Virus record (IMG/VR): IMGVR_UViG_3300038441_000386
Span: 1-33,903 of that record
Length of the DNA: 33,903 nucleotides
Origin: a virus
Reading direction: 5' to 3' (one strand)
The notes under the pieces are model-generated. The model was not told the origin of the DNA, did not search any database, and saw nothing but the letters and a program-made list of their open reading frames with translations. Shown in pieces: positions 11,369-33,492 of this stretch. Position numbers and translations under genes: made by a program. Every line of letters starts with the position of its first letter. Within the stretch, counting starts at the first letter, position 1.

Positions 11369-11376
11369 GGTTCTTC

Positions 11377-11922: not shown

Positions 11923-12215
11923 TAGGGAACAAGGTAGACCAAAGCAGGGGAACCATCGGAGTCGTACTCGACAGCTACCTTATCGCTACCTACATTCCAT
12001 ACCCTATGCACTAAAGTGCCTTTTGTAGTCCATATATCAGGTGCCCCATGCTTCTTGATCAATTGAGGCAACAGCTTCAGATTCTGTTTGGTAGTCAAAC
12101 GAAAGCCCTTCTTTGCCTCTTGTGCCGGATTCAAATCGAAACCCAGAAATTCGCTTAGGGTCGACATTTCGGTAGCCACAGAAGCAATAATCCTACTGCA
12201 AATATTCCTGATCAT
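11922..12215 (-). CDS. Hypothetical protein in packaging block
   Basis: A 97-residue protein, not recognised. It reads as an N-terminal helix (MIRNICSRIIASVATEMSTL), a basic helix (TTKQNLKLLPQLIKKHG) and a C-terminal beta hairpin (VWNVGSDKVAVEYDSDG...LVYLVP). A later ATG at the Met in position 17 is an alternative start. Its stop overlaps the next ATG by one base (TAATG), so it is co-translated with the nuclease gene. Confidence 0.6.
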   Translation of the reverse strand: MIRNICSRIIASVATEMSTLSEFLGFDLNPAQEAKKGFRLTTKQNLKLLPQLIKKHGAPDIWTTKGTLVHRVWNVGSDKVAVEYDSDGSPALVYLVP

Positions 12216-12217
12216 AG

Positions 12218-12814
12218 TTACCTCTGCAAATAACTGGTGGTCTCGTCTTTGACCTGACGGTATTGTTTATTTATCGAGTCAGCTAGACGGCTCCTGCTTT
12301 CTCGAAGAGCCGTACTGAATTCCGGCCAGTCCTTCTCAGGTATCAAGTTCTTAGCGTCGGTCGCTATGGTGCTGTACTCTCTAACAATAGCATTGGCTAA
12401 ATCAGAGTAAGCAGGCCGTATGACCTTATCGACCAGCGCTTCTCCCAACATACCTCTATCTTGAGCTGACTGAATATCGACCATTAGCTCCCGCATGCTG
12501 GATATCAGGGAGTTGATTTGGTAGACACCACGGGCACCCTTTGATTTCCGTACCGCATGTTCAGCATATGGCAGAAGATCGACCAAGCTGGATAAAGCCT
12601 TCTTGTATATCAGTTGAACAGCGGTATCCGTTTCGTTGGTATCCAGAAGCTGAAGAATCTTCTCCGCGTTATCACCAAATATGGACCGCATATTTTTGGT
12701 GTTAAGCTTGGATACCTTGCTATCGGACGGCTCCCCTTTCTCGACAGGCGCAGGAAGCATCTTGGGCTTTACTCGAATATCTTTGACTACGCCGCCTTTC
12801 GCCTTAGTTTTCAT
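12218..12814 (-). CDS. Hypothetical helical protein in packaging block
   Basis: A 198-residue mostly helical protein with a Lys-rich N-terminus and no catalytic motif. Residues 50-198 look like a bundle of amphipathic helices (QINSLISSMRELMVDIQSAQDRGM, FSTALRESRSRLADSINKQYRQV). It shares an ATGA overlap with the zinc protein upstream. A small terminase, scaffold or DNA-binding accessory would all fit the context, and the sequence does not decide between them. Confidence 0.6.
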   Translation of the reverse strand: MKTKAKGGVVKDIRVKPKMLPAPVEKGEPSDSKVSKLNTKNMRSIFGDNAEKILQLLDTNETDTAVQLIYKKALSSLVDLLPYAEHAVRKSKGARGVYQINSLISSMRELMVDIQSAQDRGMLGEALVDKVIRPAYSDLANAIVREYSTIATDAKNLIPEKDWPEFSTALRESRSRLADSINKQYRQVKDETTSYLQR

Positions 12815-13062
12815 GATGGTACGAATGTGGTAGGTAGAGGTCCGCCTTCTACCACGTCTGGTTTGGGGATTGAAATACGATCAGCGTGGCACACATAGGT
12901 TTCGTGGCCATTAGCATAACCCGTCCCCATAGGGCGCTTGCAATCCGGGCACAGACCAGCGCCTGCTACTTCAGCACTCATGTCTACCCGAGCAGTCACT
13001 GGCGTAGGTTTCTGTTCGCCAACATGGGCCGCCACTTTGGTCCAAGCTTGTGGTAACTTCAT
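12811..13062 (-). CDS. Small zinc-finger-like protein
   Basis: An 83-residue protein with CPDCKRPM at about 38-41 and a later YVCHADR, giving a CxxC plus C/H set that could hold one zinc ion. Flanks are Pro/Thr/Val rich. It overlaps both neighbours by ATGA, between the RuvC-like nuclease and the helical protein. It may be a DNA- or protein-binding accessory of the packaging block. Confidence 0.6.
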   Translation of the reverse strand: MKLPQAWTKVAAHVGEQKPTPVTARVDMSAEVAGAGLCPDCKRPMGTGYANGHETYVCHADRISIPKPDVVEGGPLPTTFVPS

Positions 13063-13667
13063 TTGATTCTCCTATTACGTAAGGGCAGCAAACTGGAAGC
13101 CTCTACCTTCCTAACAATAGACTCTGGGCTGTACCGAAGTTCTCTGCGCAAACCTGCCTCTAGTCCATAACATCCGATAAGAGAGGAATCCAGTTGGTGT
13201 GGTGTAACCAATAGCTCTCTGTATATGGCATCCAACTCATGCTCAAATCGGCGGTGAAACTGATTCTTCCACTGAGAAGCCACAATCATCTTGCAAGGCA
13301 AATGTTTGTAGGCCGTACATATGGATCCGATCATAACTGAAACAAGTTCGATCAAGGGGCCGCCTGTGCCTCGGGTTTGAAATCGCTCCATCACTAAGCC
13401 ATGGGGCTGGTACATTCTGACCCACCTATCGACCTCCTTAAGATAAACCAAAAGGGAAGCATGGAATCCCGAGGTAAGGTGTGTGATAGGGTTAGTCAGT
13501 ATAGAGTTAGCCAATACCTGAATTCTGTCCTTCTTGTCCACACCCACACAGGAGATTCCCATGTTTCTGGACCCAGGATCCAAAGATAGAACCCGTCGGG
13601 TTGTTAAGCTAAGGTCAGCAGGTTTGAGTTTGTATTCTGCATTAGGCTTTCGTGGTTTTTTCTTCAT
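13059..13667 (-). CDS. RuvC-like Holliday-junction resolvase/nuclease
   Basis: This 202-residue protein has the RuvC-fold RNase H motifs. VLSLDPGSRNMGIS gives the first catalytic Asp (Asp30), LVMERFQTRG the Glu (Glu94), and TPHQLDSSLIGCYGLEAG the late acidic motif (Asp160). Order and spacing match phage and poxvirus-type RuvC resolvases. It would cut branched DNA so that recombining concatemers can be packaged. The gene lies directly downstream of TerL in transcription order. A small perfect hairpin (TGCAAT/ATTGCA, 13685-13699) sits between the two genes. Confidence 0.85.
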   Translation of the reverse strand: MKKKPRKPNAEYKLKPADLSLTTRRVLSLDPGSRNMGISCVGVDKKDRIQVLANSILTNPITHLTSGFHASLLVYLKEVDRWVRMYQPHGLVMERFQTRGTGGPLIELVSVMIGSICTAYKHLPCKMIVASQWKNQFHRRFEHELDAIYRELLVTPHQLDSSLIGCYGLEAGLRRELRYSPESIVRKVEASSLLPLRNRRIK

Positions 13668-13700
13668 GGTTTACCCCACAATCATGCAATAAAATTGCAG

Positions 13701-15833
13701 TTACCGTATTCGCGGGAAACCTCCACCACCTCTGCTGATGTATATAGGCATAGGCGAATTAAGGCTGGTTGGGCCTGAAGACGGCTTCCATTCCTTCAGG
13801 ATTTCCATGACTTTGGGTTCGTGGAGTTTAGACACGCCTAGGACCATGGCTCGTGCCATATCATCAGTGTACCCTTCACCCTTCTCTGGCGGCCTAGACG
13901 AATTGACGTCCTTTATGGTAACCAATTGCAGCATCAAGTGAGCAACAGGTTTATTGACGAGTTCCGTCTTGAAATTCTCGACACCTATATCTAGGACCAA
14001 CCGTTGATCTTCTTTGGAGATTACGGGCAATACGAGACTCTTATCGGCCATAAGCTGGACCACAAAATCGAAGTCCTTACGTTTACACGAATACTGTTTG
14101 GTAACCGTTATCGGCTTTTGAGTTGTAGGATGTAGACCACGATCGTCCTTCATTCTGTGAAGGTGATCCAGACTATTCCACCGGTCAGCCAGCATTACAG
14201 CGCAATTGGTATTCTTGGCCAACGGTAAAAGCACATGCTGGTATACCATATTGAAGTTGATGGTTCGTCCCTGCTGTGGCACTATTTCCAACACACAGTC
14301 CACAACCGTCTTGCCTGTATTGAAATCGAAGTATGTAGAAGCCACCGCAAAGGCATTGTTGGTGAAGCCTGCATCGATGGACAGAACCGTCGGGAACTGA
14401 TGGTTGTTTAAGCGCTCCAGCTTACCGTGTATCTCACCCGGTTGGTCAAACTGGTGGACCAAAATATGTGAATTAGGTTTGCCAACAAAGATTCCGCTCT
14501 CAACGAGATTTCTCTTAATATAGGTAGAGTGTACCCGTGGTGGATTGGCTCCAAAGTCACGCTCCGCCTTTTCAGGATTACGCTCGTAGGCCAAGGCAAT
14601 GATAGGTGTGGTGCGCTCGATGTAGGGATTGACTTCCCAGGTAGGCAACTGAATACCCAATATGTTCTTCGATCCCAGTTCGGTGCGGGACTCCTTCAGG
14701 AGACGCATGACCTTATCACGTTCAGACATAGGCGATGATACACCAACCATTAGTGCGCCAGGTACAGAGTTGTAACCACGTTTCATGAGCTGCTCTGATA
14801 CAGCCTGCACGGTAGTCAAGCTGTTGGTCAGCGACTTGTGGGCCTCGTCGGAGTTGGCGCGCTCTGATTGCTCGTCTTCATCGTCTTTTCCGGAGGGTAA
14901 GGGAAAGAGGCCCAATTCGTCGATGAATGCAGCAAAGCGAGTATCACCACGGAGGATAGGGCCGTTAGGGTGACTAGGATATAAATGCAGACCTTTATGG
15001 TGATATTTGAGGAACACATCTTTTTTACGATACAATTCTTGTCCATACTTAGTACCATAGTAATCAAGCATAGCATGGTATTCTTGGAACCAACTAGAGC
15101 TACTAATCTTATTATTAAAAGGGGTCCACAGAAGGCTGAAGGCTTTATTAAAGGTTAGGGATACGAAGGTGCAGGTCAATGGTGTAGATGCTTGAAGCGC
15201 CTGCGACATCGAGGACAGCTTGGGGAACTTCAGGTATCTATGTGTCTGGTACGACCCTAGGTTAGCGGCGGTTTCCGATTTACCTGATCGCTGACCCCAA
15301 CACAGGGTCAGTTCTTGGTAGTTCCTTAGGTTGTGCTTGACTATCAGCTCATGCTTACCTGTCTTACATTTGGGGCACTTTCCATTCTCCAAGAACTGCA
15401 GGTGCTCTGGCATGTCCTTGCTTCTGTATTCCTTCGGAACATTCTCGACATCCAGCCATTTTGGATTACTACATTTAGGGCAAACCTCCCCGAAGAGCAT
15501 AGCACCGGTCCACAGCTGCCGAGCCCAAGGAGGATTGCTATCCTTACCTATGATATTGAAGCAAAAGTCATAGTAGTTCTTGGCTAACGGCAAATCACGG
15601 TCATCGATCTTGAGATCACGAAGAACACCCGTTATAGGATCTTCTGCCGAGTCCATCAAGGCTTTTATATCAAAGTCCTCGGCAAACTGAGGTTCGGGCT
15701 CAGGCAGAATAATCGATTTCTTCTTTTTCTTCTTGGTCTTCGATTCCCAATTGTCTAAAGCTTGCAAGTCTTCGGTACTAGTTAGCTCTGGAAATAGCGA
15801 GTGGACCAGAGCCTTGTTCTTCATTTTAGACAT
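13701..15833 (-). CDS. terL: Terminase large subunit
   Basis: A 710-residue packaging motor with ATPase and nuclease domains. Walker A is GQRSGKS at 180-186, Walker B AAFIDE around 301-306, and the coupling motif MVGVSSP near 361-367. The nuclease has VLSIDAGFTNNAFA (Asp486), MLADRWNS (Asp549) and GYTDDMARAM (Asp656/657). An extra zinc-like element precedes the ATPase: CPKC at 118-121 and CPKC at 153-156. A Lys run (residues 34-39) lies near the N-terminus. Length exceeds T4 gp17 (610). TerL docks on the portal, drives DNA into the head and cuts the concatemer. Confidence 0.95.
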   Translation of the reverse strand: MSKMKNKALVHSLFPELTSTEDLQALDNWESKTKKKKKKSIILPEPEPQFAEDFDIKALMDSAEDPITGVLRDLKIDDRDLPLAKNYYDFCFNIIGKDSNPPWARQLWTGAMLFGEVCPKCSNPKWLDVENVPKEYRSKDMPEHLQFLENGKCPKCKTGKHELIVKHNLRNYQELTLCWGQRSGKSETAANLGSYQTHRYLKFPKLSSMSQALQASTPLTCTFVSLTFNKAFSLLWTPFNNKISSSSWFQEYHAMLDYYGTKYGQELYRKKDVFLKYHHKGLHLYPSHPNGPILRGDTRFAAFIDELGLFPLPSGKDDEDEQSERANSDEAHKSLTNSLTTVQAVSEQLMKRGYNSVPGALMVGVSSPMSERDKVMRLLKESRTELGSKNILGIQLPTWEVNPYIERTTPIIALAYERNPEKAERDFGANPPRVHSTYIKRNLVESGIFVGKPNSHILVHQFDQPGEIHGKLERLNNHQFPTVLSIDAGFTNNAFAVASTYFDFNTGKTVVDCVLEIVPQQGRTINFNMVYQHVLLPLAKNTNCAVMLADRWNSLDHLHRMKDDRGLHPTTQKPITVTKQYSCKRKDFDFVVQLMADKSLVLPVISKEDQRLVLDIGVENFKTELVNKPVAHLMLQLVTIKDVNSSRPPEKGEGYTDDMARAMVLGVSKLHEPKVMEILKEWKPSSGPTSLNSPMPIYISRGGGGFPRIR

Positions 15834-16434
15834 TTGGGGTCCCCTTCTTGGCCCTTGGATCGTTTCCGTGTCGAGGTCCCTCAGGTACGGGCAGTATTAT
15901 GGGTTTGGGCTGTAATTCAGATATCAGGTGACTTGCTACCTTCTTGGGTAACCCGAGGTAGTCCACAATGAATCGAGCCATAGATACATTAACTGCCGTG
16001 TTCATCATACGCTCATACCGAACGAAAGTCCCTGGATCAACTTCGGTACCCAGCATCTTCTGCACTATGTCCTTAGCCTGCGCGGCACCCGCTACACCCG
16101 CTAATGTTTTGGGCCCTAATTCAGTTAGAAAGAATTCTCGAACCCGGTCTATGTGGGTACTCAATTCAGGCGGCAACTCCTTCTTATAGTCCTTTAGACG
16201 CCCTTCAACAGCGGCATCAATGTGTTCCATTACCTTGGGAGTGAATTGCTCGGCCCTCTCTTGCACTTCTTCTGAAAGACTTTTAAGCCTGAAAAAGAAC
16301 TTGGACTTACGCTTGCTCTTGGTCTTGACTGGTGTCCTTGGTACCGCAAATGCTATGTTAGACAGAGAGGCTAAGAGGGAATCCGCAGCAGCCTCCCCTT
16401 CAACATCGGTTAAAACTAAATCTACGGATTCCAT
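15826..16434 (-). CDS. Possible small terminase subunit
   Basis: A 202-residue protein overlapping the TerL start by 8 bases. The centre is strongly helical (residues 48-110: LSEEVQERAEQFTPKVMEHIDAAV...) followed by a loop (FVRYERMMNTAVN) and a Pro/Gly/Lys tail. Position directly before TerL is where TerS usually lies, and helical oligomers are typical of TerS. No helix-turn-helix is clearly visible, so the assignment is positional. Confidence 0.45.
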   Translation of the reverse strand: MESVDLVLTDVEGEAAADSLLASLSNIAFAVPRTPVKTKSKRKSKFFFRLKSLSEEVQERAEQFTPKVMEHIDAAVEGRLKDYKKELPPELSTHIDRVREFFLTELGPKTLAGVAGAAQAKDIVQKMLGTEVDPGTFVRYERMMNTAVNVSMARFIVDYLGLPKKVASHLISELQPKPIILPVPEGPRHGNDPRAKKGTPNV

Positions 16435-16437
16435 TCA

Positions 16438-17838
16438 TTACTCCTCAGTGTCTACTTCGCCCTTGAAGGCTACATACAACCGTTCAGCGGTGCCATCTGC
16501 CATCTGCTTGAAGCAGTAGGAGCGGAGGGACATAGGCTTGAAGCCCGCTTTCTTGGATATCTTGATCATCATTTCCTTGTCACCCAATACCCAAGCCTTA
16601 TACTCACCCCACGTTAAGGCTTTGGCTTTGCCTACGCCTTCAAGATTAAGAGTAAGCTTATCCCGGCCTTTACCAGTCAATTGACCTGTCTGGCGTAAGT
16701 AATACAAGGTATCCCAAAAGGGATCGAAGCCCCGTGCCATGCCTGAACCGTCTTCATGCCATAGCCTGTACCATGCTTGGCGACCAGGTGTCCACAACTT
16801 GTTCTTGACGGCCTTACTGTGGATATATCGGTATTGGTCTTTGCCATCAAATTCTACGGAGCGCTCTTCTTCCAGGTGCTCCTTGTTGAACTTCTTAGGC
16901 CACAGAGGTTGATTTGAGTTACGACCGGTATTGCGGAGACGGGCATCAGAGTTATATTTCAGAGCATTACCACCAGGTTCTGCCTCTTTAGGGCCATACA
17001 TAGCCATCGGTATAGCCCGCAGTTGATTGACGCCAACCAAAGCTACCATCTTCTCCGCAAGACGACCCTTAATGCGAGGCAGGTGCTTAGAGAACATACG
17101 GGCTTGCAAAGCCAAGCCATTGTTTGCGTCCTCTTCGTCATTGGCCGTAGAGTTCATAGCAGGATACGAGTCCACGAACACAATGCCCTGCAGTTTATCA
17201 TCAGGGGCTTCAAGCCAAATACCTTTACCATATCGCCTAGGCATAGTATCGTCTGCATACTCACCGTATTTGGCTTTGTTGATTTTGTTATCCTCAAATA
17301 CCAGCCACCACTTCTTGTTGATGTATTTTTTATCTGGTAGTTTACGAAGCACTTCCGATACATAGTCGAAGAACTTTTCGCCAACACTGACAGAGTGGTA
17401 TCGAACACGTGGTCTTATTACCCACTTACCTGTCTTCTCATCGCGTTTACCGAACAGTTCGTCATTGGTGATCTTGACCCCTGCACCTTTGATAATGGAG
17501 TGAACATACCTCTTAGAGTTCTTGGTTGAGCCCTCATAGTCCCAAAGTTCAATCAGAGGTATGACCTGTTTGATTGCCGAAGCCATGATGGTCAATGCTG
17601 TAGTAGTCTTGGCCGACTGCTCTGCACCAGCTGTCGTGTACATAGCAGCCCGAATACCACCACCCAACTGAAGGTCAAGGCAGAGCAAACCTGTGCTCAT
17701 AGCGGGCCCTGCGTCTAAGGAAGAACTCTCAACACCTTGGCGTCGAGCTATAGTATCCATGTCCTCGTTATAGATAGAGGCTATGTCAAACTTAGGCTTC
17801 TTCTCTTTGTCCTTCTTGGCTTTGTCTTTCTTAGGCAT
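16438..17838 (-). CDS. RecA/UvsX-family recombinase
   Basis: A 466-residue strand-exchange ATPase, starting at the ATG at 17836-17838 behind AAGGGA. The upstream in-frame extension runs through the terminator and is unlikely to be used. Walker A is GAEQSAKTT at 71-79, with Ala76 in place of the usual last Gly. Glu102 lies in LIELWDYEGS, and Walker B is IVFVDSYP with Asp223. The L2-type region is GVNQLRAIP ... GGNALKYNSDARLR at 269-302. An insertion of about 60-90 residues between Glu102 and Walker B makes it longer than RecA (353) or UvsX (391). It would act with the adjacent SSB in recombination-dependent replication. Confidence 0.88.
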   Translation of the reverse strand: MPKKDKAKKDKEKKPKFDIASIYNEDMDTIARRQGVESSSLDAGPAMSTGLLCLDLQLGGGIRAAMYTTAGAEQSAKTTTALTIMASAIKQVIPLIELWDYEGSTKNSKRYVHSIIKGAGVKITNDELFGKRDEKTGKWVIRPRVRYHSVSVGEKFFDYVSEVLRKLPDKKYINKKWWLVFEDNKINKAKYGEYADDTMPRRYGKGIWLEAPDDKLQGIVFVDSYPAMNSTANDEEDANNGLALQARMFSKHLPRIKGRLAEKMVALVGVNQLRAIPMAMYGPKEAEPGGNALKYNSDARLRNTGRNSNQPLWPKKFNKEHLEEERSVEFDGKDQYRYIHSKAVKNKLWTPGRQAWYRLWHEDGSGMARGFDPFWDTLYYLRQTGQLTGKGRDKLTLNLEGVGKAKALTWGEYKAWVLGDKEMMIKISKKAGFKPMSLRSYCFKQMADGTAERLYVAFKGEVDTEE

Positions 17839-17850
17839 AATTTGTCCCTT

Positions 17851-17889
17851 AAAACAAAAGGGCCCGACGAGGATCACTCCAGGTCGGGC
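17851..17889 (-). terminator. Strong intrinsic terminator after SSB gene
   Basis: On the minus strand GCCCGAC (17889-17883) pairs with GTCGGGC (17868-17862); an inner GGA/TCC stem caps the loop. CCTTTTGTTTT follows. It lies directly after the SSB-like gene stop and overlaps the leader of the recombinase gene, so part of the transcript probably reads through or the recombinase has its own start. Confidence 0.85.
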
Positions 17890-17896
17890 TCATCGA

Positions 17897-19378
17897 TTAA
17901 CGCTTAGACTTCTTTTTCTTTGACTTCTTCTTGGGCTTGGACTCCTCTTCGTCCTCATCCTCGTCGAATTCATCGTCTAGGTCATCATCGTCTTCCTCTT
18001 CCTCTTCTTCGTCCTCGTCTTCATCCTTGGACTTTTTAGACTTAGCCTTAGACTTCTTGGATTTCTTAGACTTGGGCTCATCGTCCTCTTCGGCCTCATC
18101 ATCTTCCTCGTCCTCATCATCGAAGTCATCCTCGTCTTCATCCTTCTTGGATTTCTTCGATTTCGATTTCACCTTAGACTTGGACTTTTTCTTCGACTTA
18201 GAGTCTTCTTCATCGTCCTCGTCTTCATCGTCATCGAGGTCGTCGTCTTCATCGTCATCCTTGGACTTTACCTTCTTTTTCTTCTTAGACTTGGGCTCAT
18301 CGTCCTCATCATCTTCGTCCTCATCTAGATCATCATCGAAGTCGTCATCGTCATCATCCTTCTTGGACTTCTTCTTTGACCTGGATTTTTTTGACTTGGG
18401 CTCATCATCTTCATCATCCTCATCGTCGTCAAGGTCCTCATCATCCTCATCATCTTCGTCCTTCTTTTTCTTCTTGGACTTAGACTTAGAGTCAGACTTG
18501 CTCTTCTTGGATTTCTTAGACTTGGGCTCATCGTCCTCATCTTCATCATCAAAGTCTTCGCCATCATCCTCGTCGAAGTCCTCGTCCTCGATTTCTTCCT
18601 TCTTTTTCTTCTTGACTTTGACGCCGTTGCGGCTTGCCCAACCTTCGTAATCTCTTTTCACTTCAGACTCCTTCATTTCTTCAACAAGATCAGATAGATC
18701 CCACTTCAACATTTCCTCTTCCTCTTCCGTAAGAGGCTTCCGCTCACCAATAGATACTTGATACTGGTCTGCGGGGGCCTTCTTGGAATCGTAGAGAATC
18801 CGTACATCACAGCCGTATTTTGGATGGGTAACAGAGAACGCCTTAGACTGGCCGCCCTTCATTTCTACCACATTCAAACCTGCCTGTTCCTTGAGCTTAC
18901 GCACCGCTCCTGGAGGAAGCTTGACAGCCACGTTAGCTGTCCACGTGTCGCTATCCTTATCCTTAAAGCCTGTCTTGCGTTCTGCCTTAGTAGGCTTTGT
19001 TCTGGACTTCGGCTTATCCCGTTGAGCAGCCCGGGAAAGAGCATTCATGTAACCGTGTTGCGTAAAGTTCACATGCCGTTCTTCTGGCTTAAGGTCTGCT
19101 TCAGACTCTTCCAGTTGACGCCAGGGATCGTACTTCTTGGAGTCGCGTTCTTGTGTCTTGGGGTCATAAGAAGGGCAAGGCGTATAGAACTGGCCCCGCT
19201 TACCATCCTTCTTCTTTGTCTTGACCCAGTACCCACCGTAAACGAAGATCGGGCCATGAATACGAAGCGTAATCCACTTTCGCTCAGGAAACTTGAGGAT
19301 CGTGATCTTGTCGCCTATATCGGCCCGTCTCTTACCTCCGGTACTAACATCGTCGAGATCAGTTCCCGATTGTGCCAT
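17897..19378 (-). CDS. Putative ssDNA-binding protein with very long D/E-K/S tail
   Basis: A 493-residue protein. Residues 20-250 form a globular part with an OB-like start (ITILKFPERKWITLRIHGPIFVYGG), a FYTPCPSYDP segment, and conserved-looking aromatic and basic residues, as in phage gp32-type SSBs. From about 255 the protein is a long low-complexity tail: blocks of Asp/Glu alternate with DEPKSKKSKKSKSK-type basic blocks. Acidic C-tails are normal in SSBs and contact partners, but about 235 residues is extreme. It sits directly before the recombinase gene. Function as SSB is inferred; no zinc site is certain. Confidence 0.65.
   Translation of the reverse strand: MAQSGTDLDDVSTGGKRRADIGDKITILKFPERKWITLRIHGPIFVYGGYWVKTKKKDGKRGQFYTPCPSYDPKTQERDSKKYDPWRQLEESEADLKPEERHVNFTQHGYMNALSRAAQRDKPKSRTKPTKAERKTGFKDKDSDTWTANVAVKLPPGAVRKLKEQAGLNVVEMKGGQSKAFSVTHPKYGCDVRILYDSKKAPADQYQVSIGERKPLTEEEEEMLKWDLSDLVEEMKESEVKRDYEGWASRNGVKVKKKKKEEIEDEDFDEDDGEDFDDEDEDDEPKSKKSKKSKSDSKSKSKKKKKDEDDEDDEDLDDDEDDEDDEPKSKKSRSKKKSKKDDDDDDFDDDLDEDEDDEDDEPKSKKKKKVKSKDDDEDDDLDDDEDEDDEEDSKSKKKSKSKVKSKSKKSKKDEDEDDFDDEDEEDDEAEEDDEPKSKKSKKSKAKSKKSKDEDEDEEEEEEDDDDLDDEFDEDEDEEESKPKKKSKKKKSKR
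17900..18610 (-). repeat. Low-complexity repeat encoding the acidic/basic tail
   Basis: About 700 bp of GAT/GAC/GAA and AAG/TCT codons in repeated blocks: five or more near-copies of an acidic run, then DEPKSKK, then Lys/Ser. The blocks are imperfect at DNA level. The reverse strand shows a false serine-rich frame (17931-18650) that is only a shadow. Confidence 0.85.
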
Positions 19379-22117: not shown

Positions 22118-23659
22118 TCAGAGTTTGAAGACGCCTACAGCTTTTGCAAGTCCCACAGCCTGGTCCTGCATTGATTCAGAGGCTGCCGCTGCTTCTTCAA
22201 CCAGTGATGCATTCTGTTGCGTTACCTGATCCATCTGCATGATGGCTTGATTGATCTGTTGAATACTTGATGCCTGTTCTTGACTTGCCGCCGTTATTTC
22301 TCCCATGATATCGGTGACGTGCTGAACGCTTACCACTATCTCATTCATCGTGGCACCTGCTTGACCGACGAGCTTTGTTCCCTCTTCTACGCTAGTCACA
22401 GACGCATCGATCAGGCCCTTGATTTCTTTAGCGGCACCTGCCGATTTTTGTGCAAGACTGCGAACCTCGGCTGCTACGACTGCAAAACCACGCCCTTGTT
22501 CACCTGCCCGTGCTGCTTCTACTGCGGCATTCAATGCAAGTATATTCGTCTGGAATGCAATGCTATCGATGACCCCAATGATCTGCTCAATCTTCTTGGC
22601 AGAATCACTGATGTGACCCATGGTTGTCACGACGTTTGCCACTACCTGCCCGCCCTTGTGCGCTACAGCAGCAGCCGATGCTGCAAGATTGTCGGCTTGT
22701 CTTGCATTGTCTGCATTCTGCTGAACCGTCGAGGTCAACTCTTCCATCGAGGAAGCAGTTTCTTCTAACGAAGAGGCTTGTTCTTCAGTGCGTGAAGAAA
22801 GATCGAGATTGCCTTGGGCGATTTGACTAGAAGCCGTTGCAATGGTCTCTGTACCAGAACGAACTTCACCAACGATCTTGACCAGGTTGCTATTCATGGC
22901 CTTCAGAGCCAGAAGCAATTGGCCTGTTTCGTCTTTCGTTTTCACTTCGATTTCAGAAGTGAGATCGCCAGCTGCTACTGTTTGTGCTACCTTCACCGCA
23001 GCCTTAATCGGCATTGAAATGATGCGGGCAATCCACAGAGCCAACACCATACCGAGGATGATGCTGCCTGCCAATAAGCCGCCGATCATGTTGAGCGACA
23101 ACTTATAAGATGCCTCACTGTCTTTCGAAGCTTTAGCAGTGCTTGCATTATTCAGGGTCACCAGTTGATCGATGGTTTCGATTAGATCGCGGTTCAGCTT
23201 GGTTGAACGACCACGCAATGCTGTAACTGCTTCCTCGGTTTGGCCCTTACGTGAAAGCTCGAGGATCTTTTCGTTCTCCACGTTGTACAAGTGCCATTGT
23301 CTTGCCAGATCATCCGTAAGACCCTGTTCCTCAGGAGAAAGAACAAGCTCTGTAAACGACTTTTGAAAACCCCCGAACTTCTCTATCGAGTCTTTAATCA
23401 TCTGTTCAAACTGACCACGATTGGCCTCGGTGGCTAAAACGTGCTGGAAGGTTTGGGTGCGATATCGCGCTAACGCAGCCTTCATTTCCAGTACCGATTG
23501 AACAGAGGGCAGAAGATTGCTGGAAATGGCAACCACATTGTTATTGACCTTGACCAACTGGATGATCGAAAACGCACCGAGCCCTGCAGTAAGTGCGAGT
23601 ATCAGGAAAAACGAAATGATGAGCTTGGCAGACAACTTCAGGTTGTAGAAAAACTTCAT
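22118..23659 (-). CDS. Methyl-accepting chemotaxis protein (complete)
   Basis: A full 513-residue chemoreceptor starting at the ATG at 23657-23659 behind GGAGG; an in-frame extension upstream of it is unlikely to be used. TM1 is at about 11-33, a four-helix-bundle periplasmic sensor domain at 34-188, TM2 at about 190-214, and HAMP at about 212-264. The cytoplasmic coiled coil has the hairpin tip [37 protein letters not shown] at 365-400. All parts needed to bind CheA/CheW appear intact. There is no NWETF-like CheR tether at the end. The style is typical of betaproteobacteria. It sits alone in a phage operon as a cassette with its own terminator. Confidence 0.95.
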
Positions 23660-23741
23660 AGCAGCCTCCAGGTTATTTAGGTTAAGGTGATTCAAGTTCA
23701 CAAGGTTAGCGCATAGGTCTCCCTGCTGCTCTTGCGCCTTC

Positions 23742-23747
23742 AGTATA
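23742..23747 (-). promoter_or_regulatory. Possible -10 box for chemoreceptor gene
   Basis: TATACT on the minus strand lies about 85 bases before the ATG, preceded by GTGC. No good -35 hexamer at 16-18 bases was found (AACAAT at 17). The gap 23660-23796 holds no other gene. Confidence 0.35.
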
Positions 23748-23792
23748 GCACGAAAATCACCAAAATTGTTGGTTTTCCTGGTAAAAATAGGC

Positions 23793-23844
23793 AAAAATGG
23801 TGAAAAAGCGTGAAATTTGTTGAAAAATCACGCTTTTTCACCAT
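23793..23844 (-). terminator. 17-bp perfect inverted repeat terminator
   Basis: ATGGTGAAAAAGCGTGA at 23797-23813 is mirrored exactly at 23828-23844 with a 14-base loop. On the minus strand a run of five T's follows. It starts 10 bp after the stop of the coiled-coil gene at 23855. Because the stem is symmetrical and A/T-flanked it may also act on the plus strand. It shields the chemoreceptor cassette from upstream phage transcription. Confidence 0.75.
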
Positions 23845-24780: not shown

Positions 24781-25439
24781 TAAGCACCTTCTCCTTTGGG
24801 TAGCGCATTCACGCTAGTTAAAATAAAGTCCTTAACGACCTTTGTACCATCAGGTTGCGGTATAAGGGTACCGCACGTACCTGCAACTCTGAAATCGCAT
24901 TCAGCTATATCTCGAATCACACTACCCTTAGGTGTATTAAGTACAATGATGTTGGCCACCACTTTGTTGCCTTCAATTCGAAGTCCCGTTACTTTGAGCG
25001 CGGCATCAGGATGTGCGGTGTCTTCAGGTCGTAGGGTGGTTATGTTACCAAAGACGGGCAGTCTGGTAGTCTTTATGATTTTCTGTAATTCCTCCTTAGG
25101 CCAGACCACACCATTACGGTCAGGTACGTCCAATACCATAAGCGTGGCTTCCAGTGCTGGGCAATCCCTTAAAGACCTAAGGGCTGACCCATACTCATTC
25201 CAGTAGGCCGTTGCTTCTTTGATGGTACCCCAATAGAACTCATTAGGCGGCATATACAGTAAGCATCCGCAAGCGTTTTCTGTTGGTGGCCCAATCTGTT
25301 GGGTATTACTGCAACAGACGGCTGTCTCTGTTGGGGAACTTGGGTCTGCGCTTCGCCTCCATATCTCAGCCGAGAAATTACAAATTGGGCATTTACCTAA
25401 CCAAGTACCTTCAGGCGTATCAATACGATTATATTCCAT
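24780..25439 (-). CDS. Lar-like zinc domain fused to protease-like domain
   Basis: A 219-residue protein from the ATG at 25437-25439, which overlaps the upstream stop as TAATG; a GTG nine bases earlier is possible. Residues 12-75 have GKCPICNFSAEIW, AVCCS, ACGC and ATAYWNEYG, the pattern of Lar-type restriction-alleviation zinc proteins. Residues 90-200 (VLDVPDRNGVVWPKEELQ, then KVVANIIVLNTPKGSVIRDI) resemble the start of the phage prohead-protease fold. The usual Ser is not obvious, although RVAGTCG holds a Cys in a similar place. The second assignment is weak. Not clearly an active enzyme. Confidence 0.5.
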   Translation of the reverse strand: MEYNRIDTPEGTWLGKCPICNFSAEIWRRSADPSSPTETAVCCSNTQQIGPPTENACGCLLYMPPNEFYWGTIKEATAYWNEYGSALRSLRDCPALEATLMVLDVPDRNGVVWPKEELQKIIKTTRLPVFGNITTLRPEDTAHPDAALKVTGLRIEGNKVVANIIVLNTPKGSVIRDIAECDFRVAGTCGTLIPQPDGTKVVKDFILTSVNALPKGEGA

Positions 25440-25819
25440 TATGCACACCTAGCTCTGCGTTGCTTCTTACGCTTGTTAAACATTTTGATTTGCTTTCTAG
25501 ACTCAACGAGTTTGGCTTGAGCCTCGTCTGCAAGTCCCTGAATGATGCGGTTAGCGCCAGTTAAGCCACAGACGATACCCAATATAGTGTAGTGCTGGGG
25601 CACGTCCCCATCTTCTACAGATGCCGCAGACCACAAATGACCTTGGTTATCGACATACATGCCTATAGCGGACCGCTTTTTGAATACACCATGCCATTTA
25701 CCGATCTGCGGATCGCAAGCAGAGCACAAAAGAGGCTTCTCATTGGATTTACGGAACCAATAATTACAACAGGCAGTATTTTCGACTGCCAGGCATTGCC
25801 TACAAGGGAATAGCGGCAT
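25439..25819 (-). CDS. Cys-rich zinc protein with basic FNKRKKQRRARC tail
   Basis: A 126-residue protein starting at the ATG at 25817-25819, which has GAGGA upstream. Paired cysteines occur at the N-terminus (CRQC, CC, CSAC), likely one or two zinc sites. A beta segment follows (GMYVDNQGHLWSAASV). The C-terminus is a helical basic tail ending in FNKRKKQRRARCA. The same 12-residue tail ends the unrelated protein at 33256-33492. The ribosome binding site overlaps the last half-motif of the guide array. Function unknown; nucleic-acid binding is plausible. Confidence 0.65.
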   Translation of the reverse strand: MPLFPCRQCLAVENTACCNYWFRKSNEKPLLCSACDPQIGKWHGVFKKRSAIGMYVDNQGHLWSAASVEDGDVPQHYTILGIVCGLTGANRIIQGLADEAQAKLVESRKQIKMFNKRKKQRRARCA

Positions 25820-25824
25820 TATAG

Positions 25825-26506
25825 TCCTCATTTTGGAACTGTGGTACTCTCATGTTGCACTGATTCACTCTACCGTTATGGTACTCTCTAAATATATGAT
25901 TCGCTTACATCTCAAGGTACTCTTACTTGTCAGGGCTCAATACCAGCAGTTGGTACCCTAATACTTCATGGTTCAATCATAACGACTGGTGCTCTTGGAT
26001 ATCATGATTCAATCATGTGTTTTGGTGCTCTCGTGGTTTATGTTTCACTATTCATTTCGGTGCTCTCAAATGCTATGGTTCAATCGCGCGCTAAGGTGCT
26101 TTCTAAATACAAGATTCAATTACGTTGTGTGGTGCTCTCAGATATCTTGGTTCAATTAAGCATTATGGTGCTCTACCAGTAGTGTCTCATTCTGATATGA
26201 TGGTGCTCTCAAGTTACTGATTCAATCACAAGTGCTGGTGCTCTTATATGTAATAGTTCATTCATTGAGGGATGGTGCTCTAGATTTCCAGGATTCAATT
26301 CAGCATATTGGTTCTCTACCTCACAATGGCTCACAAATATACAATGGTTCTCTTACAAACTAGGGCTCATTTTACTCATCAGGTACTCTCAAGAACTTTG
26401 ATTCACTTTAACTCTAGGGTACTCTCATGGGTAGGGATCATTTCGTAGTTTTGGTGCTCTGAAGGGCTATGATTCAATTCTGACTCTTGGTACTCTACTC
26501 ATATAT
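25825..26506 (-). repeat. TIGR-type dual-spacer guide array, 18 units of about 36 nt
   Basis: Nineteen copies of GGTnCTCT (plus-strand reading, first at 25843-25850, last at 26489-26496) alternate with 18 copies of a second 8-nt motif, consensus GRTTCAAT. The two are separated by variable segments of almost always exactly 10 nt. Unit lengths are 36 nt in 12 of 18 cases, 35 in four and 37 in two. A further half-motif fits at 25825-25832. The array starts at the stop of the Nop/IS110-type protein gene. Units contain no long repeat as in CRISPR and no reading frame. This 8+10+8+10 layout is that of TIGR arrays, whose about 36-nt tigRNAs carry two short spacers. Expression from the minus strand, with the tas gene, is assumed. 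On that strand the motifs read AGAGCACC and ATTGAATC. Confidence 0.88.
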
Positions 26507-26508
26507 GT

Positions 26509-27498
26509 TTAAGCTTCACCCACTTTGCGAAGATGGGCATGGCCCAGAATAGCAATTGGGTAAGGTAAGGGTGCAGGTTTGCCAAAATGCTTTTCATACC
26601 ACACTGCATGTAGGTCAGCAAGGAATTGCTTAACTGCATAGCGCTCACACCGTTGATTGATATGAGCCTGCGGCAATTGACCAATTGAATATGCCTTATA
26701 AGCTTCAGTGGTCTTACCAATGTTCTTGGCTTCCAGAATGCTCTTCGCTTGATCAGCGTATGCGCCACCCAAATTCTTTTCCATCTCATAAAGCTTACGC
26801 TTATCGTAGATTGCACGATAAGGACACTTCTGTGGATTCTGTTTCAAGAAAGACTGACCAATCTTCCAACAGAGGGTCTTCAGTATGGCATTCCAGGGGC
26901 GTCGGGCACCTATGGCCTCGATGTTGGCAACAGTTAGACCACCCTCAAGTTTGTTAACCTGATCGATAAAGTTCTGAGGCTTAATCCCAACATACTCAGC
27001 AACTCTGACCATAAGTTCCATAAGTTGGTCTTCGGTTATTTGGCTCTTTTGACCTAGCTCCTGATTGCTAACAAAACGTTTGATCTTCTCCCTACCGTGC
27101 CAGTAACGATTGGGGTCCAGACCAGCATATGCCCAAATGTGACCAACAGTAGGGCACTGCTCGATATCAATGTAGGCCAAAAGCCCTGCGCTTAATACGG
27201 GGCCCATGCCGTATATCTCCCGCATCCACCCACCCATAGTGTGAGCCTGTGTATAAGCGTCAAGCACAGACTTTACCTGGGTTTCTAATTTCTCAAAAGA
27301 CTGGCCAAAATGCTGAAAAGTCAGATTAGGCTCTTGGTCTTCGTATAAGGAACGAGCTTGTGCGTCAGAACGAATACGCTGGTTCTGCATAGAGTAATAC
27401 AGGTCGACCAGAAAGCGAGCCTCTCTGTCACTCAATGTACGTGCTGCCGCTTTCACGTCCTTACTGACCTTTGCTACGGCTTCGAGTAGTTCTTCCAC
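26509..27498 (-). CDS. tasA: TasA-like RNA-guided protein (Nop/IS110 C-terminal-type domain)
   Basis: A 329-residue protein with a GTG start at 27496-27498, 10 bp after the nucleotidyltransferase stop. Residues 1-88 are helical. Residues 92-140 hold the helix-hairpin-helix block WMREIYGMGPVLSAGLLAYI ... TVGHIWAYAGLDPNRYW, the hallmark shared by IS110 transposase C-termini and Nop-type proteins. The rest (150-329) is helical and basic. No N-terminal DEDD catalytic domain, HNH or RuvC motif is present, so it fits the nuclease-free TasA class of TIGR-Tas systems. The adjacent dual-spacer array supports this strongly. It may bind guides to block or mark DNA rather than cut it. Confidence 0.85.
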   Translation of the reverse strand: MEELLEAVAKVSKDVKAAARTLSDREARFLVDLYYSMQNQRIRSDAQARSLYEDQEPNLTFQHFGQSFEKLETQVKSVLDAYTQAHTMGGWMREIYGMGPVLSAGLLAYIDIEQCPTVGHIWAYAGLDPNRYWHGREKIKRFVSNQELGQKSQITEDQLMELMVRVAEYVGIKPQNFIDQVNKLEGGLTVANIEAIGARRPWNAILKTLCWKIGQSFLKQNPQKCPYRAIYDKRKLYEMEKNLGGAYADQAKSILEAKNIGKTTEAYKAYSIGQLPQAHINQRCERYAVKQFLADLHAVWYEKHFGKPAPLPYPIAILGHAHLRKVGEA

Positions 27499-27508
27499 AA
27501 TGGATCTT

Positions 27509-27814
27509 TCAGATAGGGTTGAATATGGTTATGTCCACGGGCTTACCGTTATAGGCCACATGAAATATGGTGCGGCCCTTTAGGTATCGTGGGTTCGACA
27601 GTTGTTGAGTAAACGTAGTGCTCAGTAACTTCAACAAGGTTGTAGGATCAGTCTCAACATCCGTTCGTGGTATGATCAACAGGTCTAAGTCATTGTCACT
27701 ACTGCCATCAATTAGTACACTACCAGCCACAGAGACAAAATAACCCGCCTGTAAACAGGCCTTAGATAGAGCACGAATAAGGACTAGTGCTGTCTCATAT
27801 GTCCAAATAGCCAT
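27509..27814 (-). CDS. Minimal nucleotidyltransferase
   Basis: A 101-residue protein from the ATG at 27812-27814 (TAATG overlap with the upstream gene). AGSVLIDGSSDNDLDLLIIP holds the G-S and D-x-D signature (Gly31-Ser32, Asp42 and Asp44) of the MNT/polymerase-beta fold. A later acidic strand (GKPVDITIF) gives the third Asp. Such proteins transfer a nucleotide to protein, RNA or small molecules; the acceptor here is unknown. It lies directly upstream of the tas-like gene, so it may be expressed with it. Confidence 0.7.
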   Translation of the reverse strand: MAIWTYETALVLIRALSKACLQAGYFVSVAGSVLIDGSSDNDLDLLIIPRTDVETDPTTLLKLLSTTFTQQLSNPRYLKGRTIFHVAYNGKPVDITIFNPI

Positions 27815-28080
27815 TATGTTTTGCACCTAAACCTCGACAGCCAGGTTTTCTTTTGAGGCATAGAGATCCCGAAAGGTGATCCTTTACCTTTGACGTGCGT
27901 TTCAACCAAGACCTTATAAACGTCAGGAGGTAAGTGGACTACAAGGCCGCCAGGTGTGGTGCCGTCGAATACTCTTAGTTGCGGCACATCTGTACACAAG
28001 CCAAGGGATCCTCTAGGTAAGGTCAATTGATCCGCAATTGTACTTGAACCACGGTTCATTCGATAATAATAGGTACGCAT
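27814..28080 (-). CDS. Small hypothetical protein
   Basis: An 88-residue protein from the ATG at 28078-28080 behind GGAGGAGG; longer in-frame upstream sequence overlaps the previous gene and is unlikely to be used. It starts MRTYYYRMNRGSSTIADQ and contains a hydrophobic strand pair (LVVHLPPDVYKVLVETHV) and a basic end. Not recognised. Confidence 0.55.
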   Translation of the reverse strand: MRTYYYRMNRGSSTIADQLTLPRGSLGLCTDVPQLRVFDGTTPGGLVVHLPPDVYKVLVETHVKGKGSPFGISMPQKKTWLSRFRCKT

Positions 28081-28601: not shown

Positions 28602-29092
28602 ACTAGCCTTTCGTAGGTAACGAACGAATAGCCATCATGAGGTTCCGTATGGGTAGGTATCCATTGAGAGCCTAGCGCAGGAAAGAAGGTATCACATTCA
28701 TATATGCCACATATTTCGGTAAGCAACACACGGTCAGCGAAAGGCAGGGCCAACCCGTATATCTGGGACCCACCGATAACGAATACCTCGGCATCTGATT
28801 TAGCTAACTCCAGGGCGTTCGCAAAGGAGTCCACATAGTTTATACCTTCTGGATCATGAGGTATTTTGAGTAACTCAGAGTCACGGGTTATAACTATGTT
28901 GAGTCTGCCGGGTAAACGACGCCCTATGCTCTTAAAGGTAGTATTACCCATCACAATAGGGTGACCCATAGTTATGGCCTTAAAGCGGGCCAAATCTTGA
29001 GGGATATTCCAAGGCAGAGCGTTATCTTTACCGATCCCACCGTTAAGGTCTGTTGCAGCTATAAGGCTTATTCTAGGCATGTTGATTATCAT
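28589..29092 (-). CDS. folA: Dihydrofolate reductase
   Basis: A 167-residue DHFR from the ATG at 29090-29092, chosen because AGGGA lies just upstream and the ATG overlaps the TAXI gene stop (ATGA). Motifs are ISLIAATDLNGGIGKDNALPW (start of the fold and Met20-type loop), PQDLARFK with the catalytic Asp33, MGNTTFKSIGRRLPGR (NADPH site), VFVIGGSQIYG and YECDTFFP. It regenerates tetrahydrofolate that thymidylate synthase turns into dihydrofolate. The pairing with ThyA and Tmk gives a phage route to dTTP. Confidence 0.95.
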   Translation of the reverse strand: MIINMPRISLIAATDLNGGIGKDNALPWNIPQDLARFKAITMGHPIVMGNTTFKSIGRRLPGRLNIVITRDSELLKIPHDPEGINYVDSFANALELAKSDAEVFVIGGSQIYGLALPFADRVLLTEICGIYECDTFFPALGSQWIPTHTEPHDGYSFVTYERLVWKG

Positions 29093-30024
29093 TTGGTTCC
29101 CTGCAGTTCGTACCACAACCATTTGCCCTGAGATACTGGGTCCACGTCTTGCCACTTAGCATGCGAGCCTGTGGTATCTGCAATCTTCCCCGCGTTCTTT
29201 CTCAAGCATTGACGGAGTCCAGATAAGGACCGCAACATATCATCAGAACGCCATGTTCTGGTCACTAGTAGTGCCTGTGTCGAAAGCGTATCAACAGAGC
29301 GCCCGTCATTCAGGTTACGGTATTCAACTTTACGAGCATCGTACACTGTGGCTGTATCACTATTGCCTCGCAGGGCCAAAAGCTTGAATTGGTTTACAGG
29401 CAACTTCTCTACAGCTCCCGATGGTGCACCTGCAACAATAATGGCCGCATCGATCTTACTCTTTGTCAGCGCATCTACCAACGCATTGTTATCGGCGAAA
29501 GGCACTACCTTCCAACCCAAACGAAGCAGGTCACCAAGCACCTGGGCACTGACCACAGAACCGCCTACAGCACCCACTGGACGACCCTTCAAGTCCTCGG
29601 CTACGTTGTAGGTAATCTTGTCGCCACCCAGATTGAATTTACCAAGAGAAAGCCCGCCCTCGGTCTTAGTACCAGCACGGGCAATCAGGTGAACTTCCTC
29701 TGGATGCAAAGCGAATATGGTACGAATGTTGGCTACCGAAGTAGCGTTTTGCATCTTGGACGCGAATAGAAGATCAGTAGGTACGATAGCAGCTTTAACC
29801 TTGTTTCCCTTCAGCATTTCCAAGTTTGTGACACCACCATTACTATTGATCTCTTTGAGAGGTAACTCCTCATTAGAGCATACTTGAGCAATATCACCCA
29901 ACATCCAACTGTAAGTGGAGCCCTGCTTCTGACCACCACCGCCTGCAATGGTGAAATCTTCGGCCTGAACTGAAGCTGTGGCTATTAAGCCAACACAAAG
30001 GGAGAGGAGAATTTTTCTTTTCAT
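29089..30024 (-). CDS. Secreted TAXI-type solute-binding protein
   Basis: A 311-residue protein with a Sec signal peptide: MKRKILLSLCVGLIATASVQA, cleavage likely after residue 21. The mature part starts with FTIAGGGGQKQGSTYSWMLGDIAQVC, then INSNGGVTNLEMLKGNKVKAAIVPTDLL. This is the TAXI family of TRAP-transporter binding proteins (G-x-x-x-G-x-T/S-Y near the start, N-G-G-V...N...L). Transporter partners (membrane subunits) are absent. Cys residues at 48 and about 270 could form a disulfide. Being periplasmic, it may bind a small molecule or a host receptor during infection. Such a gene is unusual in a phage. It is translationally coupled to DHFR. Confidence 0.8.
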   Translation of the reverse strand: MKRKILLSLCVGLIATASVQAEDFTIAGGGGQKQGSTYSWMLGDIAQVCSNEELPLKEINSNGGVTNLEMLKGNKVKAAIVPTDLLFASKMQNATSVANIRTIFALHPEEVHLIARAGTKTEGGLSLGKFNLGGDKITYNVAEDLKGRPVGAVGGSVVSAQVLGDLLRLGWKVVPFADNNALVDALTKSKIDAAIIVAGAPSGAVEKLPVNQFKLLALRGNSDTATVYDARKVEYRNLNDGRSVDTLSTQALLVTRTWRSDDMLRSLSGLRQCLRKNAGKIADTTGSHAKWQDVDPVSQGKWLWYELQGTK

Positions 30025-32661: not shown

Positions 32662-32747
32662 CGGGTTCCCTTATTCTGTAGTTTGCACATGTATTTACTA
32701 TTGGTTCTGGCAAGCTTAGAACATGCCCTGCAAATGTAGGATTTCAT
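32658..32747 (-). CDS. 29-residue Cys-rich micro-ORF
   Basis: A 29-codon frame (MKSYICRACSKLARTNSKYM...) overlaps the NADAR stop by ATGA at one end and the ThyA start by ATGA at the other. These two exact couplings argue that it is real. CRAC plus a later Cys could hold a metal or form a small zinc knuckle. Product unknown; it may also serve only to couple ThyA translation to the upstream gene. Confidence 0.65.
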   Translation of the reverse strand: MKSYICRACSKLARTNSKYMCKLQNKGTR

Positions 32748-33259
32748 GGTTTAACCCTTAGTTTATTGAGTTCCTCGGCAAGAAGGGATTGTCGGCAACA
32801 CATAATTATTTTCCCCAAGTTATCGTCACCTATACCATTATATACGCCCCAAAATGTATCGCCCCAATTATTGGTTTCCTCTAAGTAGGCATACTCTGTG
32901 GCTATAAGTAGGGCCTTCAGCTCAGGATTCTTGTACTTGGCTACCTGAACATTGAACATGGACCGGTAAACAACGTGGTCCCAATCAGCCCTTAACTTGA
33001 TCTTACGCCCCAGTTTCTTAACATCGCGAGGCTCAATGGTGGCCAAAACCTCGCGCCGAAAACCAGCGTCCCGTGATTTATGCCACACGTAGGCTTGCTC
33101 TGCAGACTGAAAAGCTAGACCATACAGTTGAAGGGGGTGCTTATGGAAATTACTAAGCCACCGGTACTCGTCAAAGAATCCAAGAACTGGCTTATAGTGA
33201 CGAGGCCACCTTGAATACAAGAGGTTCAGTGGATTGTAAGTCAAGGTCCGGATTCTCAT
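32744..33259 (-). CDS. NADAR (YbiA/RibX-like) domain protein
   Basis: A 171-residue protein from the ATG at 33257-33259 (ATGA overlap with the upstream gene); an ATG at 33265 is an alternative. Motifs follow the NADAR pattern: YRWLSNFH at 32-39, FQSAEQAYVWHKSRD at 50-64, KKLGRKIKLRADWD, YLEETNNWGDTFWGVYNGIGDDNLG at 125-149. NADAR enzymes remove ADP-ribose from modified nucleobases or related ligands and can counter DarT-type toxins. The gene sits just upstream of thymidylate synthase. Defence against ADP-ribosylation of phage DNA is a plausible role. Confidence 0.85.
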   Translation of the reverse strand: MRIRTLTYNPLNLLYSRWPRHYKPVLGFFDEYRWLSNFHKHPLQLYGLAFQSAEQAYVWHKSRDAGFRREVLATIEPRDVKKLGRKIKLRADWDHVVYRSMFNVQVAKYKNPELKALLIATEYAYLEETNNWGDTFWGVYNGIGDDNLGKIIMCCRQSLLAEELNKLRVKP

Positions 33260-33492
33260 TTGCATCTCGCACGGCGTTGCTTCTTTCTCTTATTGAAGAG
33301 TTTGGTATATTTGCGATTAATTAGCTTAAGGTCTTCCAGAAAGATAGCGTCCTCTTCGCGGATCATGGCTTCAACCATCTCTTGAATAACTTCCTCCTGA
33401 GCTATCAGAAAAGGATTATCACCTGTGTAGGGCTCTAGGTCTTCCGGTTTAATAGACACGATCTCTGATTGAGGTAGGTATTGGGCCATCAT
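33256..33492 (-). CDS. Small acidic protein with basic FNKRKKQRRARC tail
   Basis: A 78-residue protein starting MMAQYLPQSEIVSI. Residues 1-60 are acidic and helical (QEEVIQEMVEAMIREEDAIFLEDL); the end is KLFNKRKKQRRARCK. Its first two codons are both ATG. The 12-residue tail matches that of the zinc protein at 25439-25819, in an unrelated body. Function unknown; the tail may target nucleic acid. Confidence 0.6.
   Translation of the reverse strand: MMAQYLPQSEIVSIKPEDLEPYTGDNPFLIAQEEVIQEMVEAMIREEDAIFLEDLKLINRKYTKLFNKRKKQRRARCK

What the first reader, a model, noticed from the sequence alone, without database searches (positions are those of the whole stretch)
25825..27498. Phage-encoded TIGR-Tas system: TasA-like protein plus dual-spacer guide array
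A gene for a Nop/IS110 C-terminal-type protein without any visible nuclease domain ends at the edge of an array with strict 8+10+8+10 spacing. The array has 18 units, 12 of exactly 36 nt, with two alternating 8-nt motifs (GGTnCTCT and GRTTCAAT on the plus strand) and 10-nt variable segments. This is the layout recalled for TIGR-Tas (tandem interspaced guide RNAs with two spacers per guide). That is established knowledge recalled without a search. The role in this phage (silencing, superinfection exclusion, targeting of host or rival DNA) is unknown.
Basis: partly seen in the sequence, partly recalled or inferred. Interest (0 to 1): 0.95.

Follow-up and report, generated by a model that had tools for sequence, protein, structure and literature searches.

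The report
Phage TIGR-TasA RNA-guided DNA-binding system
A large environmental phage carries a nuclease-less member of the recently described TIGR-Tas family, a protein followed by an array of 19 two-part RNA guides; it is a genuine new member of a known kind, and its relatives' arrays change much faster than the protein, which suggests a race against changing DNA targets.

Summary
The finding holds. The protein at 26509-27498 (-) is a TasA. NCBIfam's curated TIGR-Tas model scores it 186.8 bits (cut-off 100). Its family profile hits TasR (9mty) and TasH (21kl). A confident model (pLDDT 92.6) has TasH/TasR as its ten PDB matches at E<=0.001. It lacks an N-terminal RuvC or HNH domain. The array (26511-25824, minus strand) is real: 19 loop and 18 full edge repeats, units 35-37 nt (12 of 18 exactly 36). 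88 of 90 relatives clearly have a same-strand array nearby. [quoted passage not shown] By terminase the carrier is closest to jumbo phages BcepSauron and Motura, where no Tas was detected. New in relatives: TasA proteins 98-100% identical can carry largely different arrays, differing by internal whole units; some phages have arrays tens of kb from tas. No targets were found: 603 spacer pairs gave no exact match in their own contigs. Best reading: RNA-guided, non-cleaving DNA binding against rival DNA; that last step is inference.

The parts
26509..27498 (-). tasA: 329-aa solo Nop-domain (Nop/IS110 C-terminal type) protein, GTG start, TAA stop; carries a ~60-aa helical insertion at residues 134-197
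   Evidence: NCBIfam NF052498 186.8 bits, cut-off 100; PDB profile TasR 8e-29 and TasH 4e-16; AlphaFold2 pLDDT 92.6 and Foldseek top hits TasH/TasR; phrog_4285 3e-45
25824..26511 (-). TIGR dual-repeat array, 19 predicted tigRNA units (edge - spacer A - loop - spacer B), on the strand of tasA
   Evidence: lag-36 autocorrelation 0.53 vs null max 0.38
26506..26511 (-). 5'-truncated edge repeat TAAACA, fused to the tasA stop codon TAA
   Evidence: sequence; same arrangement ([TAG]CCA, [TAA]GCCA) in many relatives
26488..26497 (-). first loop repeat TAGAGTACCA (19 loop repeats, consensus nAGAGnACCA)
26470..26479 (-). first full edge repeat AATTGAATCA (18 full edge repeats, consensus nAnTGAnYCA)
25824..25833 (-). 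last, 3'-truncated edge repeat AAATGAGGAC; contains the ATG (25831) of the next ORF
   Evidence: relatives end the same way
27509..27826 (-). upstream gene ending 10 nt before tasA: small protein with a nucleotidyltransferase-like GS..DLDL motif; probable operon neighbour, not a recurrent tas partner
   Evidence: sequence; no Pfam, PADLOC or NCBIfam hit; not recurrent in relatives
25439..25831 (-). downstream ORF starting in the last truncated edge repeat; unknown (phrog_11861)

Best explanation
This is a phage-borne TIGR-TasA system. SHOWN by sequence: a TasA protein of the TIGR-Tas family, and right behind it on the same strand a dual-repeat array of 19 edge/spacer-A/loop/spacer-B units. BY HOMOLOGY to tested systems (FpTasA, TaTasR, SpTasH in Faure 2025): the array is transcribed, cut inside the edge repeats into about 36-nt tigRNAs, and a TasA dimer holds one tigRNA; spacer A pairs with one strand of a DNA target and spacer B with the adjacent stretch of the other strand, unwinding and sharply bending it without needing a flanking motif. 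INFERRED: with no nuclease, TasA acts as a roadblock to transcription or replication of DNA that competes with the phage (other phages, prophages, plasmids, perhaps host genes). The arrays diversify by gaining and losing whole units inside the array, probably through edge-repeat recombination plus an unknown source of units, to keep up with changing targets. Identity and layout about 0.97; RNA-guided DNA binding about 0.85; non-self interference as the role about 0.5.
For: Identity. Array. Family coherence: 88 of 90 fetched relatives clearly have the same kind of array near tas, on the tas strand, above the level of random phage DNA. Mechanism of TasA/TasR/TasH: PMC12045711. Non-self role: 603 spacer pairs of 28 contigs have no exact match in their own contig and no excess of near matches; the window's 19 pairs likewise over about 53 kb. 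Rapid turnover: TasA 98-100% identical but e.g. only 7 of 26/50 spacers aligned, with internal whole-unit changes.
Against: No target was found for any spacer, so the role is not shown. Non-self cannot be separated from an unseen part of the same genome: only about 53 kb of a probable >200-kb genome is visible. The window's edge repeats are more degenerate than most relatives'. A terminator-like hairpin at 25790-25772 (-) is at chance frequency and lies inside the next ORF. In the paper read, TasA was shown to bind 36-nt RNA, but DNA targeting was demonstrated for TasR/TasH, not for TasA.
Confidence: 0.85

Rival explanations
1. TIGR-TasA as a regulator of the phage's own or its host's genes: the guides bind promoters or origins to time expression or silence host functions, rather than fighting rivals.
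For: A nuclease-less DNA-binding effector suits regulation; the paper lists gene regulation as an option.
Against: No self-targets in 28 phage contigs or 53 kb of this phage. Fast array turnover with an almost unchanged TasA is unlike a set of fixed regulatory sites.
Confidence: 0.25
2. TasA as an RNA-guided DNA-bending aid to recombination, replication or segregation of the phage genome (integrase helper or ParB-like partner).
For: Proposed in the paper from the ~180 degree bend and from TasParB operons; L001 has a ParB-like ORF (DGQHRL motif) about 2.8 kb from tas.
Against: Would need sites in the phage or at an integration site; no self-sites found. No ParB-like family recurs near tas in this clade and none was seen next to tasA in the window.
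Confidence: 0.1
3. Decayed system: the window's array and gene are a relic, since its edge repeats vary a lot.
For: Edge repeat consensus is loose (nAnTGAnYCA) against near-uniform repeats in many relatives.
Against: The ORF is intact with a high-confidence fold. Loop repeats are 17/19 exact, spacing is kept within 1 nt, and the TGA core of the edge repeat is kept in 17 of 18 full copies.
Confidence: 0.05
4. IS110-type transposase remnant beside an unrelated repeat array, or a small CRISPR array.
For: Pfam Transposase_20 hit 1.6e-5; PHROG label 'transposase'.
Against: NCBIfam IS110 model scores 23 bits against a cut-off of 140 while the TIGR-Tas model passes. No N-terminal DEDD domain. The array recurs with the gene in almost every relative. 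Repeats of about 10 nt in two alternating kinds are not CRISPR.
Confidence: 0.01

Closest known systems
TIGR-TasA dual-repeat systems (Faure et al. 2025, PMC12045711; FpTIGR of Flavonifractor plautii)
   Same: Solo Nop-domain protein; adjacent array of alternating edge and loop repeats with two short spacers per ~36-nt unit; truncated edge repeats at both ends; found in tailed phages.
   Different: Here repeats are 10 nt and spacers 8 nt (paper: 8-12-nt repeats, mostly 9-nt spacers). The array starts inside the tas stop codon. TasA has a ~60-aa insertion shared with about a fifth of relatives (12 others of 63). By terminase the carrier is closest to the jumbo phages BcepSauron and Motura, where no Tas was detected.
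TasH and TasR (PDB 21kl/9w04 and 9mty)
   Same: Same Nop core and coiled coil, top fold and profile matches; same guide layout.
   Different: They carry N-terminal HNH or RuvC nuclease domains; the window protein has none.
TasA-TasParB operons (Faure et al. 2025, fig. S14)
   Same: 10-nt edge and loop repeats.
   Different: No TasParB gene was seen next to tasA in the window, and no recurrent ParB-like neighbour in this clade.
IS110/IS621 bridge-RNA transposases
   Same: Homologous C-terminal RNA-binding part.
   Different: No DEDD domain; a guide array instead of a single bridge RNA; transposon ends were not looked for.

Membership tests
TIGR-Tas (TasA, dual-repeat type) | Protein of the Tas branch of Nop-domain proteins | tested here: met
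   NF052498 4.8e-55, 186.8 bits over cut-off 100; TasR/TasH best in PDB by profile and by fold
TIGR-Tas (TasA, dual-repeat type) | No nuclease domain (TasA rather than TasR/TasH) | tested here: met
   Matches begin at the coiled coil; no RuvC/HNH family hit in Pfam, PHROGs or NCBIfam
TIGR-Tas (TasA, dual-repeat type) | Adjacent array of two alternating 8-12-nt repeats with short spacers, ~36-nt unit | tested here: met
TIGR-Tas (TasA, dual-repeat type) | Array begins with 5'-truncated and ends with 3'-truncated edge repeat | tested here: met
   [TAA]ACA at the start, AAATGAGGAC at the end; same in relatives
TIGR-Tas (TasA, dual-repeat type) | Rho-independent terminator after the array | tested here: inconclusive
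   One hairpin+T-run at 25790-25772 (-), but 3 found vs 2.8 expected, and it lies inside an ORF
TIGR-Tas (TasA, dual-repeat type) | Box C (CCA-like) and box D (UG-like) ends shared by edge and loop repeats | tested here: inconclusive
   Family consensus GAGNGNNCCA is shared by both repeats and the CCA end fits box C; but the loop has AG where the edge has YG and the TasR repeats have UG
TIGR-Tas (TasA, dual-repeat type) | Processing to 36-nt tigRNA bound by Tas | not testable with these tools
   needs small-RNA sequencing
TIGR-Tas (TasA, dual-repeat type) | Tandem-spacer DNA targeting | not testable with these tools
   Target searches found no site above chance; binding needs an experiment
IS110 transposase | N-terminal DEDD catalytic domain and IS110 equivalog score | tested here: not met
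   23 bits vs cut-off 140; domain absent
CRISPR array | One long (>20 nt) repeat, Cas genes | tested here: not met
   Two alternating ~10-nt repeats; no cas gene among the window proteins scanned

The most novel reading that the evidence does not exclude
Phage TIGR-TasA arrays are a fast-evolving offensive or defensive memory without an adaptation machinery. Units are swapped inside the array, edge to edge, at a rate far above that of the TasA gene, and one TasA may serve several arrays scattered over the phage genome. The window's system would be a member of this arms-race weapon, blocking rival mobile DNA by binding and bending rather than cutting it.
Probability: 0.35. Interest if true: 0.8.

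Novelty: new member of a known kind. Interest (0 to 1): 0.55.

Why it matters
TasA is described as the commonest Tas effector and the one whose function is least apparent (PMC12045711). This locus places an intact TasA with 19 guides in a phage whose terminase is closest to those of jumbo phages. The surrounding family adds facts on points the paper listed as open: arrays change inside, by whole edge-to-edge units, while TasA stays 98-100% identical; the arrays do not target the carrier contig; and some carriers hold arrays tens of kb from tas. That makes the questions of array growth and of target choice directly testable, for instance with the tas loci found in the isolates Halomonas sp. NO4 and Acidobacteriaceae KBS 96.

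Tried and rejected
Self-targeting by spacer pairs (A followed by rc(B), gaps 0-2, and the reverse arrangement): 603 pairs, 0 exact, near matches not above mis-paired controls. Targets in other fetched phages: 4 exact hits against 2-5 in controls (2-7 for the reverse arrangement). A whole IMG/VR scan for one widely kept unit of the L028-L031 cluster: 13 scattered hits, none in that project's samples. Window pairs against the window plus 19.5 kb of the same phage: best 2 mismatches, as in controls. Phage database by DNA or protein with the window gene: no match. A conserved partner gene: none recurs beyond array-derived ORFs and general phage genes; the nucleotidyltransferase-like neighbour seen in the window and in L001 looked promising but is not recurrent. 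The Microcystis phage hit is weak (28% identity, 36% coverage); its neighbourhood was looked at and not pursued. Sister phages carrying the same tas locus: not found; the one near-identical contig (G053) stops before the locus.

Full report
What was checked. The array is real. On the minus strand, from the stop codon of the gene at 26509-27498, there are 19 copies of nAGAGnACCA and 18 full copies of a looser motif nAnTGAnYCA, alternating with short variable stretches. The 18 full units measure 36 nt (12), 35 (4) and 37 (2). The lag-36 self-match is 0.53 against at most 0.38 in 20 shuffled windows. Of 49 random 9-kb pieces of the relatives' contigs, 48 scored about 14 or less in the motif-chain test, against 391 here; the one exception (165) turned out to be a real second array. 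No other array lies in the window, and no Rfam family or tRNA is found in it.

What the protein is. Pfam gives only the IS110 C-terminal domain and PHROGs calls it 'transposase', but NCBIfam's TIGR-Tas equivalog model matches it at 4.8e-55, well above its cut-off, while the IS110 equivalog fails. The model's name says endonuclease; this member has no nuclease domain. A profile of 62 relatives finds TasR (9mty) at 8e-29 and TasH (21kl) at 4e-16, IS621 only at 3e-5. The AlphaFold2 model has mean pLDDT 92.6; its ten PDB matches with E<=0.001 are TasH and TasR chains, and the eleventh match is TasH too. There is no N-terminal nuclease, so it is a TasA. It has a helical insertion (residues 134-197). 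Among 64 representatives this stretch is either 4-5 or 54-70 residues long, the long form in 13 including the window.

The family. Scans of IMG/VR and GTDB gave about 90 relatives, mostly 33-50% identical over their length. In 88 of 90 the array chain on the tas strand scores clearly above the random level; L019 has no array beside tas and L088 is marginal. The repeats share a common form, loop GAGAGNACCA and edge GAGYGARCCA, 10 nt each, with 8-nt spacers. In many relatives the array starts in the stop codon of tas, as [TAG]CCA, i.e. [quoted passage not shown] The window does both, which yields 19 guides. This matches the published description of TIGR arrays (PMC12045711).

The carrier. The window is a 33.9-kb virus fragment with a terminase about 50% identical to that of the jumbo phages BcepSauron and BcepSaruman and 46% to Motura, plus portal, UvsX-like recombinase, SSB and sigma-factor genes. 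A second contig, G053, has a 100% identical terminase, matches the compared 8-kb stretch (window 10000-18000) at 100%, and extends about 19.5 kb beyond the window's left end. No relative of the window TasA was detected in any of the 50,697 phage records searched, which include those jumbo phages.

How arrays evolve. Contigs with TasA 98-100% identical often have largely different arrays: L028 and L029 have identical TasA over 274 aa, yet only 7 of their 50 and 26 spacers align; L034 and L037 align at 27 of 44 and 54 in the same order, with unique units in between; the closest pairs (L008/L010, L017/L018) are nearly the same. Changes are internal and mostly whole units: 110 gap blocks start after an edge repeat, 39 after a loop repeat. 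The last unit is shared in 13 of 16 pairs. This differs from the leader-end growth of CRISPR arrays and supports the edge/loop assignment. Some phages hold further arrays far from tas (G031 at 62, 66 and 75 kb with tas at 19 kb; G016 at 80 kb with tas at 104 kb).

Targets. If tigRNA works as in TasR, a target reads spacer A followed by the reverse complement of spacer B; this order was derived here from the published cut sites and 8-nt 3' overhangs, and the reverse order was tested as well. In 28 contigs, 603 pairs had no exact match in their own contig, and near matches were not above mis-paired controls. Other phages in hand and one IMG/VR-wide scan gave only chance-level hits. So the arrays do not target the carrier contig, and real targets remain unknown. 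With 16 specified bases, database-wide searches have little power.

Interpretation. Identity and layout are shown; guide processing and tandem-spacer DNA binding are carried over from tested homologues; the role is inferred. Fast, internal array turnover with a constant protein, no self-sites, and a non-cutting effector fit best with blocking rival DNA. Regulation of host or phage genes remains the main rival.

Noticed in passing
window 22118-23794 (-): Full-length methyl-accepting chemotaxis protein (4HB sensor, HAMP, MCP signal) between phage genes. In the phage collection the good matches lie in records that look like bacterial DNA.
   Followed up: partly
window 32744-33265 (-): NADAR-domain protein (Pfam 2.3e-16; PADLOC PDC-M42C), possibly reversing ADP-ribosylation used in host defence.
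   Followed up: no
window 29089-30024 (-): TAXI/NMT1-like solute-binding protein, known as a phage family (phrog_6856).
   Followed up: no
window 25439-25831 and 33256-33492 (-): Two otherwise different ORFs end in the same tail FNKRKKQRRARC.
   Followed up: no
window 17897-19378 (-): Single-strand DNA-binding protein with a long acidic/lysine low-complexity tail; the identical contig G053 ends near here, probably an assembly break.
   Followed up: no
window 13059-13667 (-): RuvC-like Holliday junction resolvase encoded about 13 kb from tasA; a stand-alone RuvC, no sign of a link to TasA.
   Followed up: no
L175/L178 (G031), L119 (G016), L188 (G041), L154 (G029): Extra TIGR arrays away from tas, up to about 55 kb in G031.
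   Followed up: partly
L028-L031, L033-L037, L045-L050, L080/L081: Arrays of near-identical TasA differ by internal gain and loss of whole units.
   Followed up: yes
L086, L087: TasA with array in records named as bacterial isolates (Acidobacteriaceae KBS 96, Halomonas sp. NO4): possible laboratory models.
   Followed up: no
window tasA residues 134-197 (26909-27100): About 60-residue insertion, present or absent as a block across the family, at the point where TasR/TasH have only a short linker.
   Followed up: partly
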